DNA of 11,456 nucleotides, from NCBI GenBank assembly GCA_009781575.1, contig WQXW01000026.1:1-11456 (forward strand). Direction: 5' to 3'. Below, piece by piece: positions 6,590-11,456 of the stretch. The DNA comes from Solirubrobacterales bacterium (GTDB lineage Bacteria > Actinomycetota > Thermoleophilia > Solirubrobacterales > Solirubrobacteraceae). Under the pieces are notes generated by a model. It did not search any database and had not been told where the DNA came from. It saw nothing but the letters and a program-made list of their open reading frames with translations. The translations under genes and the position numbers were made by a program. The first letter of the stretch is position 1, and each line of letters starts with the position of its first letter.

Positions 6590-6595
6590 GTATGC

Positions 6596-6871
6596 GTGAA
6601 GCGTACGACGGTGATGCTGCCCGACGAGGTCGACGCGCGCCTGCGCCGCGAGGCGCGCCGCCGGGGCGTGTCGATCGCCGAGTTGACGCGGGAGGCGATC
6701 GAGGCGCAGCTGCCGTCGGTCCCGCCGAAGGGCGCGCCGCTGTCGTTCTTCGCGATCGGCGAGGGCGGCCCGCCCGATGCGGCGCGCCGCGCGAAGGAGT
6801 TCGTGGGGGACGCGATCGAGCGACGCGAGCGTGCCGCCAACCGCACCCGCGGACACAGACGCTCGGCCTAG
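6596..6871 (+). CDS. vapB: Ribbon-helix-helix antitoxin (VapB-like)
   Basis: A 91-aa DNA-binding antitoxin. The N-terminus has the ribbon-helix-helix layout: strand KRTTVMLP, helix DEVDARLRREARRRG, turn, then helix SIAELTREAIEAQL (about residues 2-39). Such proteins dimerise on the operator of their own operon. The C-terminal half (FFAIGEGGPPDAARRAKEFV and beyond) would wrap the toxin. It starts with GTG 6596, probably on a leaderless mRNA, and stops 2 nt before the toxin ATG, giving tight translational coupling as expected for a toxin-antitoxin pair. Autoregulation through the promoter region is likely from the family, but no operator palindrome was pinned down. An ATG at 6592 is in the toxin's frame and is not its start. 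Confidence 0.87.
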   Translation: MKRTTVMLPDEVDARLRREARRRGVSIAELTREAIEAQLPSVPPKGAPLSFFAIGEGGPPDAARRAKEFVGDAIERRERAANRTRGHRRSA

Positions 6872-6873
6872 CC

Positions 6874-7284
6874 ATGCTGATCGTCGACGCGGGCCCTCTG
6901 TACGCGGCGGCGGCGAGCGGGGATGAGGATCACGCGCGCTGCGCGGAGTTACTGGCGAGCGCGCCGCGGCCGCTGCTGGTCCCCGAGCTCGTCGTCACTG
7001 AGGTCTCCTACCTGCTGAGCGACCGCATCGGGGCGCACGCGGAGCTGGCGTTCGCGCGCTCGATCGCGGCGGGCGAGCTCACGATCGAACCGGCACTCGA
7101 GAGCGAGTGGGAGCGCGTGGTGGAACTGGTCGAGCGCTACGCGGACCTCCCGCTGGGCGTGGCCGACGCCTCGCTGGTGGCACTCGCCGAGCGCCACGAC
7201 CAGCGGCAGGTCGCGAGCCTCGACCACCGTCACCTGGGCGTGGTGCGCCCACGGCACACAGACCGGCTCACGCTGTTGCCCTGA
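6874..7284 (+). CDS. vapC: PIN-domain ribonuclease toxin (VapC-like)
   Basis: A 136-aa single PIN domain, normal length. VapC toxins are Mg2+-dependent endoribonucleases that cut tRNA or rRNA and are held inactive by VapB. The acidic metal-binding residues appear in order: Asp5 in LIVDAGPLYA, Glu43 in VVTEVSYLL, Asp98 in PLGVADASLVA, and Asp117 in VASLDHRHL. The set is complete, so the toxin should be active. The ATG at 6874 follows the vapB stop by 2 nt. It is flanked upstream by the dispersed repeat and downstream by a nested inverted repeat, then the guanidine riboswitch of the next operon. The RNA target cannot be predicted. Confidence 0.9.
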   Translation: MLIVDAGPLYAAAASGDEDHARCAELLASAPRPLLVPELVVTEVSYLLSDRIGAHAELAFARSIAAGELTIEPALESEWERVVELVERYADLPLGVADASLVALAERHDQRQVASLDHRHLGVVRPRHTDRLTLLP

Positions 7285-7349: not shown

Positions 7350-7365
7350 ACTTCATATGGTTCCG

Positions 7366-7476
7366 CTCGCCCTAGGGTTCCGCTGCCGTGATCGCCGGCA
7401 GGCCTGGTCCGAGAGGGCTGGCCGGCACCTACATAGCCGTGCTTACACGGCGGGACAAAAGCCCGGGAGACATGGC
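7366..7476 (+). promoter_or_regulatory. ykkC-type guanidine-I riboswitch aptamer
   Basis: All conserved blocks of the class are present in order: CTAGGGTTCCG (7372-7382), a P2 hairpin CTGCCG/CGGCAG (7383-7388 and 7396-7401), CTGGTCCGAGAG (7404-7415), then ACACGGCGGGACAAAAG (7445-7461) and CCCGGGAGA (7462-7470). The class senses free guanidine and usually turns on guanidine export or breakdown genes. Related ykkC variants bind ppGpp, PRPP or nucleotides and differ at a few core bases. The downstream hydrolase and transporter fit guanidine best. The 3' conserved strand is also the left arm of a terminator, which indicates an ON switch. A TATGGT at 7356-7361 could be the -10 box; this is weak. 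Confidence 0.92.
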
Positions 7477-7499
7477 TGTTTCCCGGGCTTTTGCCTTTT
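7457..7499 (+). terminator. Intrinsic terminator, riboswitch expression platform
   Basis: A perfect 12-bp stem, AAAAGCCCGGGA (7457-7468) with TCCCGGGCTTTT (7481-7492), has a 12-nt loop and is followed by GCCTTTT. Its left arm overlaps the last conserved aptamer block, so ligand binding should block the hairpin and let transcription continue into the hydrolase gene. Confidence 0.92.
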
Positions 7500-7500
7500 C

Positions 7501-7506
7501 GAGGAG
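7501..7506 (+). promoter_or_regulatory. Ribosome binding site for TTG start of the hydrolase
   Basis: GAGGAG directly follows the terminator, with four bases before TTG 7511. It is the only Shine-Dalgarno near the start of conserved protein sequence. The longer open frame to 7388 runs through the riboswitch and is not coding. Confidence 0.65.
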
Positions 7507-7510
7507 CGTT

Positions 7511-8158
7511 TTGAACTCGTCAACTGCAACAACCGTGTTGGTCTTGATCGACGTACAGCGAGCGGAGGTGCTGGCGGGCGATCACGGCATTCCCGTCATG
7601 GCGGGTGGCGCCGAGCGGCACGAGCGCATCCGCGCGCTGCTGGCGCTCGCGCGCGAGCGCGGCGTGCCGGCGGTGTTCGTCCAGGAGGTGCACAAGCCCT
7701 CGCTGATCGACTTCGGGCGCGAGCTGGACGGCGTCGAGGGAGTGCACTGCCTGGAGGGCGATCCTGCCACCGAGCTGGCCGAAGGGCTGGAGCCGCGGGC
7801 CGAGGAGTACCTGATTCGCAAGCGCCGCTACTCCGCTTTCTTCGCCACCGAGCTCGATCTGGTGCTCTCCTCATATGGCGCGCAGACGCTGATCCTCGTC
7901 GGCGCCTTGACAGATGTGTGCGTTCACTACACCTTCGTGGACGCGCATCAGCACGACTACCGCTGTCTCCTCGTCACCGACTGCGTGGGCGGGTCCTCGG
8001 CGCAGGCGCACGACGCCGCCCTGCGCGCGATGGCCTACCTGCAGCGCGATTGCCTCGTGTGCAGCGCTGAGGTGCGAGCAATGCTGGACGCAGCGCGCGC
8101 GAGCACCGAGTGTACGGCGACACCGAGCAGCGCCATCACGGCAGAGGTGACGGCATGA
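7511..8158 (+). CDS. Isochorismatase-family cysteine hydrolase, guanidine-riboswitch controlled
   Basis: The family cleaves amide or ester bonds through a Cys-Lys-Asp triad; members include nicotinamidase, biuret hydrolase, triuret hydrolase and guanylurea hydrolase. With TTG 7511 as start the protein has 215 aa, a usual length. The triad is seen as Asp14 (VLIDVQ), Lys104 (IRKRRYSAF) and Cys137 (GALTDVCVHYT), with the family's pre-Cys segment before it. The C-terminal segment VDAHQHDYRCLLVTDCVGGS is also typical. It is the first gene after a guanidine-I riboswitch and precedes a peptide-type ABC transporter, so it likely acts on an imported guanidine-related or urea-like amide. The exact substrate is not readable. 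The stop (TGA 8156-8158) overlaps an ATG inside a tandem repeat. Confidence 0.9.
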   Translation: MNSSTATTVLVLIDVQRAEVLAGDHGIPVMAGGAERHERIRALLALARERGVPAVFVQEVHKPSLIDFGRELDGVEGVHCLEGDPATELAEGLEPRAEEYLIRKRRYSAFFATELDLVLSSYGAQTLILVGALTDVCVHYTFVDAHQHDYRCLLVTDCVGGSSAQAHDAALRAMAYLQRDCLVCSAEVRAMLDAARASTECTATPSSAITAEVTA

Positions 8159-8260
8159 CCACGGTGACGACATGGCCGCGGTGGCGGCGTGACCAGGGGG
8201 CGGTGGCGACATGACCAGGATCGTGGCGACGTGACCAGGATCGTGGCGACGTGACGGTGG
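8146..8260 (+). repeat. Degenerate tandem repeat at the hydrolase-ATPase junction
   Basis: Six units of 17 to 21 nt begin at 8146, 8163, 8180, 8201, 8222 and 8242. The pattern is GGTGRCGRC, then ATG or GTG, then RCC plus a variable tail (AGGAT in the last full units). The units starting at 8222 and 8242 are identical over their first 14 bases. Each unit carries a start codon, usually overlapping TGA (ATGA or GTGA), and the hydrolase gene ends inside the first unit. Confidence 0.8.
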
Positions 8261-8263
8261 AGG
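8259..8263 (+). promoter_or_regulatory. Shine-Dalgarno deciding the ATPase start
   Basis: GGAGG lies 8 nt before GTG 8272, whereas the GTG codons inside the tandem repeat, including 8251, have no such site. This favours the start after the repeat. Confidence 0.7.
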
Positions 8264-8271
8264 CAGCGGGT

Positions 8272-10107
8272 GTGAGCACGGTGGCGACGACGCCCGCGCT
8301 GGCGGTGCGGGGGCTGCACGTCACCTTCCCCTCGCCGCGAGGGGACGTCCACGCGTTGCGGGGCGCCACGCTCGACGTGCAGCCGGGCGAGATCATGGGA
8401 TTGGTGGGCGAGTCGGGCTCGGGGAAGAGCGTGCTCGGGCTCGCCGCGCTCGGGCTGCTGCCCAAGCCTGAGCAGCTGCGCATGTCGGGGTCGGTGACCC
8501 TCGACGGCGAGGACATGCTGAGCGCCACCGAGCAGCAGCGGCGGGCGCGGCGGGGCAGTTACATCACGGCCATCTTCCAGGACCCGATGGCGTCGCTGAA
8601 TCCCTCGATGAGGATTGGCGCACAACTCGCCGAGGCCGCGCCGGAAGCGGATCAGGAGCAGATCGTGGCGCTGCTCGCCGACACCGGGATACCGGAGCCG
8701 CGTGCGAAGGTGGGTTGTTACCCACACGAACTCTCCGGCGGGCTGCGCCAGCGGGTCATGATTGCGATCGCGCTGGCGCGCAACCCTCGCCTGGTGGTCG
8801 CCGACGAGCCGACAACCGCGCTGGACGTGACCATTCAGGCGCGGGTGCTCGAGCTGTTGGCGCGCTGCACCGCCGAGCACGGCTCCTCGCTTTTGCTGAT
8901 CACGCACGACCTCGGCGTCGCCGCGCAGCTCTGCGACCGCATCTCGGTCGCCTACGCGGGGCGCATCGTCGAAGTCGGCCCCACCGCCCGGGTGCTGTCC
9001 CGCCCGCGTCACCCCTACACCGTCGGGCTGCTCGCCAGTCGCCCTCGCCTCCACGGGCGGGTCGCGCACGGGAAGCTGCCGGTGCTGCCCGGCCAACCAC
9101 CCGACCCGCGCAGCCCGGCCGGCGGGTGCGCCTTCGCACCGCGCTGTCCCGTCGCCGACGATGCCTGCGCCAGGCCCACGCCGGTGTCGCTGATCGACGG
9201 CCGCCGCTGCGAGTGCCACCACGCCGGCGCGTGCGCGGCGTGGCCCGAGAACGGCTCCTCGCAAACCCACGCCGACGCGCTGCTGCGCGCGGTGCAGGGG
9301 GACATCGCGAGCGCGCAGCACAACGCGGCGCGCCCGCCCGCGCAGACTGTGCCGGTCCTCGCGCTCGAGGTGCGGGAGCTCGTGTGCGAGTTCGCGGCGC
9401 CGCGCCGGCGGATTCGCGGCCGGCCGGGCGCGCCGCTTCGCGCCGTCGGCGGCGTCAGCCTGGCCGTGCCCGCGGGCGGCTCGCTGGCGATCGTGGGCGA
9501 GTCGGGATCCGGCAAGACCACGCTGCTGCGCATGATCGTGGGGCTGCAGCGACCGACGAGCGGCCGCGTGCTGCTGGGCGCGGGCGCGGGCGCGCAGCTC
9601 ATCTTCCAGGACGCCGGCGCGTCGCTGACGCCGTGGATGTCGATCGGCGCGCAGATCGAGGAGCGGCTCGCGCGGCTCGCGCTGGGCAGAGCCGAGCGCG
9701 CCACGCGCGTGCTCGAGGCGCTGCACGCCGTGGGGCTGCCGTCGGAGGCGGCCGGCGCGCTGCCGCGCTCACTGTCGGGCGGCATGCGCCAGCGCGCGGC
9801 GATCGCCCGCGCGATCGCGGTCCCGCCGACGCTGCTGGCCTGTGACGAGCCGGTGTCGGCCCTCGATGTGTCGCTGGCCTCGCAGGTGCTCAACCTGCTG
9901 TGCGAGCTGCGCGCCAAGCTCGGGCTGGCGCTGCTGTTCGTGACCCACGACCTGGCAGCCGCGCGCGCGGTCGCCGACGAGGTGGTAGTGATGAGCGGCG
10001 GCCTCGTGGTCGAGCGCGGGCCGGCCGAGCGGCTGTTCGCCGCGCCCCAGCATCCCTATACGCAGGAGCTGCTCGCCGCGGTCCCCGACATCGCGCGGGC
10101 CGCCTGA
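8272..10107 (+). CDS. Dpp/Opp-type ABC transporter ATPase, two domains fused (DppD-DppF)
   Basis: Energises import by a peptide/nickel/opine-class ABC transporter. The 611-aa protein carries two complete ATPase domains. The first has Walker A GESGSGKS (46-53), Q-loop Gln103, signature LSGGLRQ (154-160), Walker B LVVADEP (174-180) and switch His212. The second has Walker [10 protein letters not shown] (409-417), Gln446, LSGGMRQ (501-507), LLACDEP (521-527) and His559. After the first domain comes the family's oligopeptide C-terminal extension with HPYTVGLL and cysteines 286, 292, 299 and 313, the arrangement that binds an iron-sulfur cluster in some DppD proteins. The fusion resembles glutathione importer GsiA. 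It lies in the riboswitch operon after the hydrolase; the permease follows 4 nt later. Confidence 0.95.
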
Positions 10108-10111
10108 CCCC

Positions 10112-11029
10112 GTGGCGAGCGAAACGGTCGAGATCGGCGTGGGCTCGCCACCAGCGCCAGCCACCAGCGCCCGCCGGCCGGCGCGCCTCTCACTTGGCCG
10201 CCGGCGCCCGGTCGTCGCGCTCACCGCGGGCGGCTCGCTGCGAGGCGCGCTCGCGCCGGTGGGGCTCGTCACACTGATAGTGCTGGCGCTGCCGCTGCTC
10301 GCCACCCACAGCGCCACCGCGGTCACGGCGGCCGGCCCGTTTCACACACCGTCGTGGTCGTATCCGTTCGGCACCGACGACGTGGGCAGAGACGTGTTCT
10401 CGCGCGTGCTCTTCGGCATGCGCGAGTCGTGGCTCAGCGCGCTCGGGGTGATCGCGGTGGGCGCCACCTTCGGCGCCGTGGTGGGAGCGCTCGCGGGGGC
10501 GTTCGGGGGATGGCTCGACATGGTGCTGATGCGCGTCACCGATCTCTTCCTCGCGCTCCCCGCCCCGGTGATCGCGATCGCGGTGGTGGCGTCGGTGGGC
10601 CCGAGCCTCTTTCACACACTGCTGGCACTCAGCGTGGTGTGGTGGCCGTGGTATGCGCGCATCGTGCGCGGTGAGGTTCGCGCCCACGCGGCCCGCCCCC
10701 ACGCCGACGCCGCGCGCCTGGCCGGAGTGGGTCGCGCGCGCCTCGTGCTGCGCCACCTGCTCCCCGGCGCGCTCGCCCCGGTGGTGGTGACCATGTCCCT
10801 GGACGTGGGAAACCTGATCCTCGCCCTCGCGGCGCTGTCGTTCATCGGGCTCGGCGCGCCACCGCCGTCGCCCGAGCTGGGCGCGATGAGCGCCCAGGGA
10901 ATGGAGTACCTGCTCGCCTACTGGTGGGTGCCAATCGCCCCCGCCGCCGCCGCTGCGCTGCTCGCTCTCGTGGCGAACCTGCTCGGCGACCGTGCCAACC
11001 GCCATCTCGACCAGGAGAGAACCCGATGA
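10112..11029 (+). CDS. DppC/OppC-type ABC transporter permease
   Basis: A 305-aa inner-membrane subunit of a peptide-class importer. A polar, Pro/Arg-rich N-terminus of about 45 residues precedes the first helix (APVGLVTLIVLALPLLA). The DppC signature FGTDDVGRDVFSRVLFG (86-102) and the cytoplasmic coupling loop ADAARLAGVGRARLVLRHLL (198-217, EAA-like) are intact, as is the C-terminal ALSFIGLGAPPPSPELGAM segment. Start GTG 10112 has no clear ribosome site and lies 4 nt after the ATPase stop, so translation is probably coupled. Its stop overlaps the next gene as ATGA. The second permease (DppB type) normally needed for a functional pore is not in the window before this gene. Confidence 0.93.
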   Translation: MASETVEIGVGSPPAPATSARRPARLSLGRRRPVVALTAGGSLRGALAPVGLVTLIVLALPLLATHSATAVTAAGPFHTPSWSYPFGTDDVGRDVFSRVLFGMRESWLSALGVIAVGATFGAVVGALAGAFGGWLDMVLMRVTDLFLALPAPVIAIAVVASVGPSLFHTLLALSVVWWPWYARIVRGEVRAHAARPHADAARLAGVGRARLVLRHLLPGALAPVVVTMSLDVGNLILALAALSFIGLGAPPPSPELGAMSAQGMEYLLAYWWVPIAPAAAAALLALVANLLGDRANRHLDQERTR

Positions 11030-11456
11030 CACCTCGCCGCGCCCCGCTCGCCCTGCGCCCTGCCCTGCTCGCCGGGCGCCGCATCCCGCGCGCCGTTCGC
11101 CGCGCCCCGCTGGGCGCGGCCCTGCTCGGGGCGCTGATTCCCGCGGCCGCCGCGCTGTCGAGCTGCGGCGCCACCACCACCGCGACCTCCGCGACCGGCT
11201 CATCGTCGGGCAGTCACGTGCTGACGATCCCCTACCTGGCCGACATGTCGGTGCCGGACCCCGACATCTTCTACGACATCGAGGGCAACTCGGTGATCCT
11301 CTCCGCCTACGAAGGCCTGGTCACATACGCGCCCAACTCCGACCGGATCATCCCCGCGCTGGCGACGAGTTGGAGTGAGTCGCCGGATCGACTGACCTAC
11401 ACCTTCCACCTGCGCCCCAACGTGCACTTCCACGACGGCTCGCCGTTCACCTCCCA
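11026..11456 (+). CDS. Family 5 substrate-binding lipoprotein, partial (3' end beyond window)
   Basis: The N-terminal 143 residues of an extracellular solute-binding protein that delivers ligand to the Dpp/Opp-type transporter. A long Arg-rich leader (residues 1-27) precedes a hydrophobic core and lipobox LSSC, with Cys47 as the lipidation site, then a Thr/Ser linker. The mature start (HVLTIPYLADMSVPDPD) and the later segments SAYEGLVTYAP, IIPALATSWSE and YTFHLRPNVHFHDGSPFTS are the standard opening of SBP family 5. ATG 11026 has AGGAG 8 nt upstream and overlaps the permease stop. The pocket residues that decide the ligand lie outside the window. Order hydrolase, DF, C, A differs from the usual A-B-C-D-F. 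Confidence 0.93.
   Translation, partial: MTPRRAPLALRPALLAGRRIPRAVRRAPLGAALLGALIPAAAALSSCGATTTATSATGSSSGSHVLTIPYLADMSVPDPDIFYDIEGNSVILSAYEGLVTYAPNSDRIIPALATSWSESPDRLTYTFHLRPNVHFHDGSPFTS

What the first reader, a model, noticed from the sequence alone, without database searches (positions are those of the whole stretch)
7366..11456. Guanidine-riboswitch operon joining an isochorismatase-like hydrolase to a Dpp/Opp-type importer
Seen: a complete ykkC/guanidine-I aptamer with overlapping terminator, then a cysteine hydrolase, a fused DppDF ATPase, a DppC permease and a family 5 binding lipoprotein, all collinear with short gaps. Known: guanidine-I riboswitches mostly control SMR exporters, guanidine carboxylase with its partners, and nitrate-type ABC transporters. 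Inferred: here the switch drives uptake and hydrolysis of a guanidine-releasing or guanidine-like compound, with no guanidine carboxylase in view. This could be a little-described scavenging route in actinobacteria.
Basis: partly seen in the sequence, partly recalled or inferred. Interest (0 to 1): 0.85.

Follow-up and report, generated by a model that had tools for sequence, protein, structure and literature searches.

The report
Guanidine-sensing operon with unusual importer
A soil-type actinobacterium carries a guanidine-sensing RNA switch in front of genes that appear to import a guanidine-yielding compound, cut it, and strip the nitrogen from the guanidine part; genes that would finish the job lie on another piece of the same unfinished genome.

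Summary
A guanidine-I aptamer (7361-7471, 73.3 bits, cut-off 63) overlaps a strong terminator-like hairpin. A cysteine hydrolase (HYD), a fused DppDF ATPase, DppC and a cut-off binding lipoprotein follow. The window is a whole contig, so the operon is truncated by assembly. Contig C89 of the same genome starts inside the same type of lipoprotein and continues with DppB, CgdA, CgdB, a stand-alone carboxyltransferase (CT) and allophanate hydrolase. Four relatives in the order have the set contiguously.

Elsewhere in the phylum HYD and the importer sit with guanidinase plus urease (L122, L155) or with full guanidine carboxylase (Mycolicibacterium L150). This supports import and hydrolysis of a guanidine-yielding compound, and corrects 'no guanidine carboxylase in view'.

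HYD fails the tests for known biuret and guanylurea hydrolases, so its substrate is open. The CT lacks biotin carboxylase and carrier domains and has Met where guanidine carboxylases have Asp, in 120 of 120 listed length-matched relatives (118 by script, 2 by eye). Against: most HYD relatives found show no guanidine genes nearby. I rate it a new variant of a known kind; HYD's substrate and the lone CT are the testable points.

The parts
7361..7471 (+). guanidine-I riboswitch aptamer (RF00442)
   Evidence: 73.3 bits, gathering 63, E 7.2e-12, model 1-107
7456..7493 (+). terminator-like hairpin overlapping the aptamer's 3' end, followed by CCUUUU
   Evidence: -30.3 kcal/mol, z -6.28, 0 of 200 shuffles; not reported by the simple scan
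7501..7506 (+). likely ribosome binding site GAGGAG
   Evidence: read from the sequence; inference
7511..8158 (+). isochorismatase-like cysteine hydrolase (HYD), 215 aa; invariant D14, K104, C137
   Evidence: PF00857 137.5 bits; 44-row alignment A3; AlphaFold model pLDDT 93.1, best Foldseek match BiuH
8251..10107 (+). fused DppD-DppF ATPase, 618 aa
   Evidence: two ABC_tran and two oligo_HPY stretches; NF008453 428.2 bits over cut-off 408
10112..11029 (+). DppC-type permease, 305 aa
   Evidence: Opp2C 235.7 bits, below its cut-off 300; NikC and DppC models also below cut-off
11026..11456 (+). family-5-type substrate-binding lipoprotein, first 143 codons; cut by the contig end. A later part lies at the start of G000:C89 (L128:116-949)
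   Evidence: NikA/CntA-type matches, all under cut-off; continuation

Best explanation
The window holds the front half of a guanidine-induced nitrogen-scavenging operon. Without guanidine the transcript stops at the hairpin at 7456-7493; when guanidine binds the aptamer, transcription runs on (inferred from the family). The Dpp-type ABC importer brings in a guanidine-yielding compound, and HYD hydrolyses an amide or carbamoyl C-N bond of it, giving guanidine or directly carboxyguanidine. That product induces the switch further. CgdAB turns carboxyguanidine into allophanate and AtzF breaks it into ammonia and CO2; the stand-alone CT, with an unknown carboxyl donor, probably puts free guanidine back into this path. 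Shown: aptamer, hairpin, gene content and its conservation. Inferred: ligand, substrate class, reaction of HYD, role of CT, adjacency of the two contigs. I put 'guanidine or guanidino-compound scavenging operon' at about 0.9 and 'HYD produces guanidine or carboxyguanidine' at about 0.5.
For: Aptamer and hairpin. The own genome's C89 carries the end of a binding protein, DppB, CgdA (TIGR03425 285.3 bits, cut-off 205.95), CgdB (TIGR03424 309.3, cut-off 284.7), CT and AtzF (TIGR02713 561.2, cut-off 511.05). The same order is contiguous in L113, L114, L115 and L116. In 296 genomes drawn from the phylum, 3 of 9 over-cut-off switches head operons with HYD and Dpp (own, L156, L155), and 5 others have a relative of the L122 guanidinase within 1.5 kb, 4 downstream on the switch's strand and 1 on the other strand. 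HYD and Dpp occur with guanidinase and urease in L122 and L155, and in L156 the operon runs on to a urease gene at the contig edge; in L122 HYD is fused to a metallo-beta-lactamase-fold domain, and the L155 match spans the same fusion. The guanidinase gene of L122 scores 628 and 555 bits to solved proteins named agmatinase 2, which I recall to be the Nitrospira and Synechocystis guanidinases. Mycolicibacterium L150 carries CgdA-CgdB-full guanidine carboxylase-AtzF, then DppDF-C-B-HYD-SBP. P. senegalimassiliensis L147 has a switch before CgdAB, AtzF beside it and two HYDs, but only biotin-carboxylase-type and no CT matches. All 8 HYD-first switch loci of the order have DppDF next; the 3 CgdA-first loci show neither in the DNA held. 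HYD's nearest folds are biuret, maleamate and triuret hydrolases. Precedent: methylguanidine-demethylating genes inside a guanidine-I operon (PMC12508155, abstract and passages).
Against: HYD's family is not guanidine-only. Of the 80 loci, my reading links 18 to guanidine genes or a switch: 16 on the same contig (L019, L020, L021, L023, L031, L052, L055, L060, L069, L071, L074, L075, L079, L085, L087, L088) and 2 only through other contigs of the genome (L022, L044). The other 62 show none in the DNA held, leaving aside partial or weak amidase and arginase matches in some. Guanidine-linked HYDs are not one clade (8 label changes, shuffled mean 20.1). A sister group has HYD and Dpp with LacI-like, PfkB and GATase1-like genes and neither switch nor Cgd genes, which points to a sugar- or nucleoside-like substrate there. 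HYD fails the guanylurea and biuret hydrolase tests. CT fails the guanidine carboxylase signature. G474, a CgdA-first genome, has a HYD (70%) elsewhere, beside an APC permease. The MAG relative of P. senegalimassiliensis (G364) has two short CT-type matches of 80 and 73 bits. C26 and C89 were not physically joined. No ligand or enzyme was tested.
Confidence: 0.55

Rival explanations
1. HYD acts on the allophanate side: it is a biuret-hydrolase-like enzyme that makes allophanate for AtzF, and the importer brings biuret-like or other ureido compounds; guanidine only serves as a nitrogen signal.
For: Best solved relatives and best NCBIfam model are biuret hydrolases; AtzF is in the operon.
Against: 78.4 bits against the BiuH cut-off of 370. 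In L122 and L155 HYD sits with guanidinase and urease, and AtzF did not show in tblastn. A guanidine switch would sense neither substrate nor product.
Confidence: 0.13
2. The Dpp/Nik-type importer supplies nickel (or a nickel chelate) for guanidinase and urease, and HYD is a side enzyme.
For: The ATPase also passes the NikD model cut-off (348.4 against 318.7). L122 and L155 carry guanidinase and urease, L156 a urease gene.
Against: In the own genome and L113-L116 the downstream genes are CgdAB, CT and AtzF, not the nickel enzymes, yet the importer is kept. The NikA match of the (partial) binding protein stays far under cut-off (46.7 against 393).
Confidence: 0.08
3. The importer takes up free guanidine, as other ABC or APC carriers are thought to do, and HYD acts on an unrelated amide.
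For: Guanidine importers are usual in such operons (PMC12186494, PMC11410670, passages).
Against: HYD and DppDF occur together in 8 of 8 HYD-first switch loci of the order, while the 3 CgdA-first loci show neither in the DNA held, 2 of them with an APC permease gene divergent to the switch. Only 836 bases downstream are held on the contig of the third (L118).
Confidence: 0.1
4. The aptamer is a ykkC variant for PRPP, ppGpp or another ligand.
For: Such variants share the fold (PMC6031431, passages), and sub-cut-off ykkC-like sites before EamA and TauE genes exist in the same family.
Against: Over the RF00442 cut-off, with the CUGGUCCGAGAG and ACACGG.GGGA stretches of the consensus; the genes downstream are guanidine genes. 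No PRPP or ppGpp model appeared among the Rfam matches, so that contrast was not scored.
Confidence: 0.03

Closest known systems
Guanidine-I riboswitch / guanidine carboxylase (gca-cgdAB-atzF) operons (Raoultella, Klebsiella, Vreelandella; PMC12186494, PMC12508155, passages)
   Same: guanidine-I switch, CgdA, CgdB and AtzF with an ABC importer
   Different: peptide/nickel-type importer (the known ones are nitrate-type as I recall), extra cysteine hydrolase, and a stand-alone CT with Met in place of the full guanidine carboxylase with Asp
Methylguanidine pathway MgdH/MgdL in a guanidine-I operon (PMC12508155, abstract and passages)
   Same: extra genes in a guanidine operon that free guanidine from a larger guanidino compound
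   Different: dioxygenase and lyase there; here a cysteine hydrolase, in some relatives with a metallo-beta-lactamase-fold partner
Guanylurea hydrolase (Pseudomonas mendocina; PMC9800807, passages)
   Same: isochorismatase-like fold; makes guanidine from guanylurea
   Different: 32% identity to the MET-strain enzyme as I identified it; HYD lacks its loop insertion and its DKPGYGAFY stretch
Biuret hydrolase BiuH
   Same: best Foldseek match
   Different: NCBIfam score 78.4 against a cut-off of 370
Guanidinase operons with urease (PMC12186494, PMC11410670, passages)
   Same: guanidine-I control; HYD and Dpp appear in such operons in L122 and L155
   Different: the window's operon continues, as inferred, with CgdAB, CT and AtzF instead

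Membership tests
Guanidine-I riboswitch | RF00442 gathering score | tested here: met
   73.3 against 63
Guanidine-I riboswitch | terminator alternative to the aptamer's 3' end | tested here: met
   hairpin 7456-7493, z -6.28; simple scan negative
Guanidine-I riboswitch | binds guanidine and rejects PRPP/ppGpp | not testable with these tools
   needs in-line probing
Isochorismatase-like hydrolases | PF00857 and Asp-Lys-Cys triad | tested here: met
   137.5 bits; D14, K104, C137 invariant in 44 rows; that these are the triad is recalled
Biuret hydrolase BiuH | NF050097 cut-off | tested here: not met
   78.4 against 370
Guanylurea hydrolase | orthology to a characterised enzyme | tested here: not met
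   32% identity, missing loop insertion; only the MET-strain enzyme, identified by me, was compared
Carboxyguanidine deiminase CgdAB (own genome, C89) | two adjacent DUF1989 subunits over TIGR03425 and TIGR03424 cut-offs | tested here: met
   285.3 against 205.95 and 309.3 against 284.7; DUF1989
Allophanate hydrolase AtzF (own genome, C89) | TIGR02713 cut-off | tested here: met
   561.2 against 511.05 although cut by the contig end
Guanidine carboxylase | biotin carboxylase, CT and biotin carrier in one protein; TIGR02712 cut-off | tested here: not met
   own: profile 445-1116 of 1201, 784.7 against 1303.85; no biotin carboxylase match listed on C89
Guanidine carboxylase | Asp at K. lactis position 1330 (criterion in PMC11410670, passage) | tested here: not met
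   Met in own and in every CT-only locus that showed the motif, and in 120 of 120 listed CT relatives (118 by script, 2 by eye); Asp in 120 of 120 listed full-length-search relatives; position placed by my count on the alignment
Guanidine carboxylase | Asp at K. lactis position 1584 | tested here: met
   LGLGDV stretch in L113 (my count); the column is not among those that differ
Guanidinase (L122, L155) | Thr, His and Trp signature residues of PMC11410670 | not tested
   assigned by 628 and 555 bits to solved relatives and 91% identity of L155 to L122
Dpp/Opp/Nik importer | ATPase over a curated cut-off | tested here: met
   NF008453 428.2 against 408; NikD 348.4 against 318.7, so substrate not decided

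The most novel reading that the evidence does not exclude
A carboxylase-free entry into guanidine metabolism: HYD hydrolyses a carbamoyl- or acyl-guanidine straight to carboxyguanidine, which CgdAB and AtzF mineralise without ATP or biotin. P. senegalimassiliensis, with switch, CgdAB, AtzF and two HYDs but no CT match, would be the pure form. In the window's relatives the lone Met-type CT would be a biotin-carboxylase-free enzyme with a changed substrate, as the 5-oxoprolinase subunits that share its domains are.
Probability: 0.2. Interest if true: 0.82.

Novelty: new variant of a known kind. Interest (0 to 1): 0.62.

Why it matters
Where natural guanidine comes from is called a major gap (PMC12186494, abstract). 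A hydrolase that recurs beside both described guanidine-breakdown routes, together with an importer, gives a concrete enzyme and binding protein with which to look for an environmental guanidine source. The stand-alone Met-type CT questions what counts as a guanidine carboxylase and can be tested directly.

Tried and rejected
Guanylurea hydrolase orthology was the first lead and failed on sequence. Inferring the substrate from the binding protein (of L113) failed: its solved relatives carry many names, among them YliB, AgaA, heme-, nickel-, dipeptide- and agrocinopine-binding proteins. Inferring it from shared neighbours of HYD across the 80 loci gave mostly lineage-specific sets. No Rfam family at gathering score explains 9 loci without a switch; one tRNA was the only match. 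Alignment A1 had 9 of 14 aptamers on the wrong strand and was redone. Alignment A4 has two rows (L099, L104) at wrong coordinates and was used for no count. In the HYD tree the bootstrap had not settled; 13 of 99 rows were dropped first: second copies of the same gene, three fragments (L048, L076, L082), and, by oversight, both copies (L106, L115) of the G563 gene, so that gene is missing. L022, L025 and L026 were labelled 'other' there although their genomes or close kin may be guanidine-linked.

The CT samples are capped and length-filtered: one search lists the 120 best of 5361 and admits only proteins of about 360-1150 aa, so full-length carboxylases could not appear; one search lists the 120 best of 7997 and admits only about 670 aa and more (a few of its 120 rows are shorter than full length). 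The first leans to Solirubrobacteraceae, the second to Mycolicibacterium, as far as names are given.

Novelty searches of the held open-access library: 'guanidine riboswitch' + isochorismatase, 0 papers; five terms with oligopeptide and actinobacteria, 1, an unrelated genome paper by title; ykkC + isochorismatase, 2, unrelated by title; 'guanidine-I riboswitch' + dipeptide, 0; three of four carboxylase terms, 20, none on a lone guanidine CT by title. Subscription papers and supplements were not seen.
Full report
What is there. The window is one whole contig (C26, 11456 bases) of a 2.25 Mb, 401-contig genome rated 73% complete. At 7361-7471 it holds a guanidine-I aptamer over the Rfam cut-off, the only match found in that genome. 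A hairpin at 7456-7493 that uses the aptamer's 3' end folds at -30.3 kcal/mol; 0 of 200 shuffles fold as well. HYD, the fused DppDF ATPase, DppC and the first 143 codons of a family-5-type binding lipoprotein follow.

Where the operon goes. Contig C89 (6935 bases) of the same genome starts with a later part of the same kind of binding protein, then DppB, CgdA, CgdB, a carboxyltransferase protein and AtzF, the last cut by the contig end. The order equals that of four relatives in which the whole run is on one contig: L113, L114, L115 and L116. L113, and the pieces L131 and L132, have an extra metallo-beta-lactamase-fold gene after DppB. In the genomes of L021 and L020 the later genes lie on other contigs (L131, L132), and in that of L019 (83% complete) no CT was found. 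That C26 and C89 are neighbours is a strong inference, not a join.

How often. In 232 genomes of the order, 14 have an aptamer match and 11 one over the cut-off. Of the 11, 8 have HYD first and DppDF next (own, L099, L102, L103, L105-L108) and 3 have CgdA first (L100, L101, L104). The 3 weaker sites precede an EamA and two TauE transporter genes, the context described for ykkC subtype 2d with unknown ligand (PMC7266159, passages). In 296 genomes drawn from the phylum, 16 have a match and 9 one over the cut-off; HYD or the fused form is in the operon in 3 of these 9 (own, L156, L155). In 5 others (L004, L005, L007, L009, L010) a gene 66-70% identical to the L122 guanidinase lies within 1.5 kb, in L004 on the other strand; L003 shows neither (its wider stretch L157 neither).

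Links to guanidine breakdown. HYD stands with: (a) CgdAB, lone CT, AtzF and Dpp (order of the window; in the Frankiales genome, in pieces L060, L125, L130, with two switches); (b) full guanidine carboxylase, CgdAB, AtzF and Dpp in Mycolicibacterium L150, with no switch found there; (c) guanidinase, urease and Dpp behind a switch in L122 and L155, HYD being fused to a metallo-beta-lactamase-fold domain; (d) Dpp, a metallo-beta-lactamase-type match and a urease gene fragment behind a switch in L156; (e) CgdAB, CT and AtzF without Dpp in the 20 kb of Conexibacter L151, and, next to an APC permease, divergent from them in Patulibacter L152, with no switch found in either genome; (f) another ABC importer (nitrate type by eye) and AtzF in P. 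senegalimassiliensis L147, where the switch precedes CgdAB on the other strand. In Microbacterium, HYD with an Opp-type importer (L023) and the full carboxylase set (L153) lie on one 39741-base contig about 12 kb apart, with genes on the other strand between them. The carrier type changes while HYD stays, which argues for a small guanidino compound.

Carboxylase. In the own genome the CT covers profile 445-1116 of 1201 of TIGR02712. Of 17 genomes searched, 0 have a match over that family's cut-off and 11 have a CT-type match of this kind (my reading of the rows), while Mycolicibacterium scores 1724.5 against 1303.85. By the criterion in PMC11410670 (methods passage) guanidine carboxylases have Asp at K. 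lactis position 1330. The CT-only proteins have Met there, in every CT-only locus in which the motif was found and in 120 of 120 listed relatives (118 by the script's rule, 2 by eye), while L150, L153, L154 and 120 of 120 relatives listed for the full-length query have Asp. Both lists are capped and length-filtered, as told in Tried and rejected. The second signature Asp is kept. G545, a single-contig genome, has switch-CgdA-CgdB-CT-AtzF and only a 32%-identical HYD-like match. There the CT is the only visible source of carboxyguanidine, which favours a split carboxylase using a carrier from elsewhere. P. senegalimassiliensis has no CT match in two searches, which favours direct formation of carboxyguanidine by HYD there; its MAG relative G364 has two short CT-type matches of 80 and 73 bits. 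Both routes can be true.

Hydrolase. D14, K104 and C137 are invariant in 44 rows, with R106, Y107, S108 and F110 of the KRRYSAF stretch. The model (pLDDT 93.1) is closest to biuret hydrolase, then maleamate and triuret hydrolases, nicotinamidase and RutB. HYD is 32% identical to the MET-strain guanylurea hydrolase, which I identified in CP098607.1 as the cysteine hydrolase next to a nucleoside deaminase, following PMC9800807 (passages). So it may work like a guanylurea hydrolase but is not shown to be one.

Results against the reading. Of the 80 loci, I link 18 to guanidine genes or a switch, 2 of these only through other contigs of the genome; the other 62 show none in the DNA held. Guanidine-linked HYDs do not form one clade. 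A sister group couples HYD and Dpp with LacI-like (by eye), GATase1-like and PfkB genes without switch or Cgd genes in L043, L063, L070 and L077; L061 and L084 are cut short. L055 of that branch has the switch and an EamA gene, but no breakdown genes on the stretch held. G474, whose switch operon starts with CgdA, has a HYD elsewhere beside an APC permease. Gene starts come from my own codon model and are approximate. DppDF of L114 is in two pieces in tblastn.

Verdict. A real, conserved guanidine operon of new composition.

Noticed in passing
L119, L120, L121 (G509, G557, G556): Sub-cut-off ykkC-like sites before one EamA and two TauE transporter genes, the context of the orphan subtype 2d (PMC7266159 passages).
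   Followed up: partly
L150:18752-19768: The Mycolicibacterium cluster ends with a DIOX_N/2OG-Fe(II) oxygenase; related genes recur in 5 loci, L044, L052, L069, L074, L079. Some 2-oxoglutarate oxygenases release guanidine (PMC12186494 passages).
   Followed up: partly
L151:16721-18340: Fusion of a creatininase domain to a metallo-beta-lactamase-fold domain beside the Conexibacter guanidine genes.
   Followed up: no
L043, L063, L070, L077 (L061 and L084 cut short): HYD and Dpp set with LacI-like regulator, GATase1-like and PfkB genes, no switch: possibly a nucleoside- or sugar-like substrate.
   Followed up: partly
window 6592-7284: PIN-domain gene directly upstream of the switch, preceded by a small 86-aa ORF: looks like a toxin-antitoxin pair by eye.
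   Followed up: no
L155:11625-11919 and L156:1-164: Rfam 5_ureB_sRNA matches on the strand opposite to the urease genes.
   Followed up: no
L125:1097-1612 and L150:18195-18725: A related 172-177 aa protein without Pfam match after the metallo-beta-lactamase-fold gene.
   Followed up: no
plasmid NZ_CP107787.1, 226779-227387: A 62.7%-identical HYD relative on a Streptomyces plasmid, the best of 603 plasmid records with a match.
   Followed up: no
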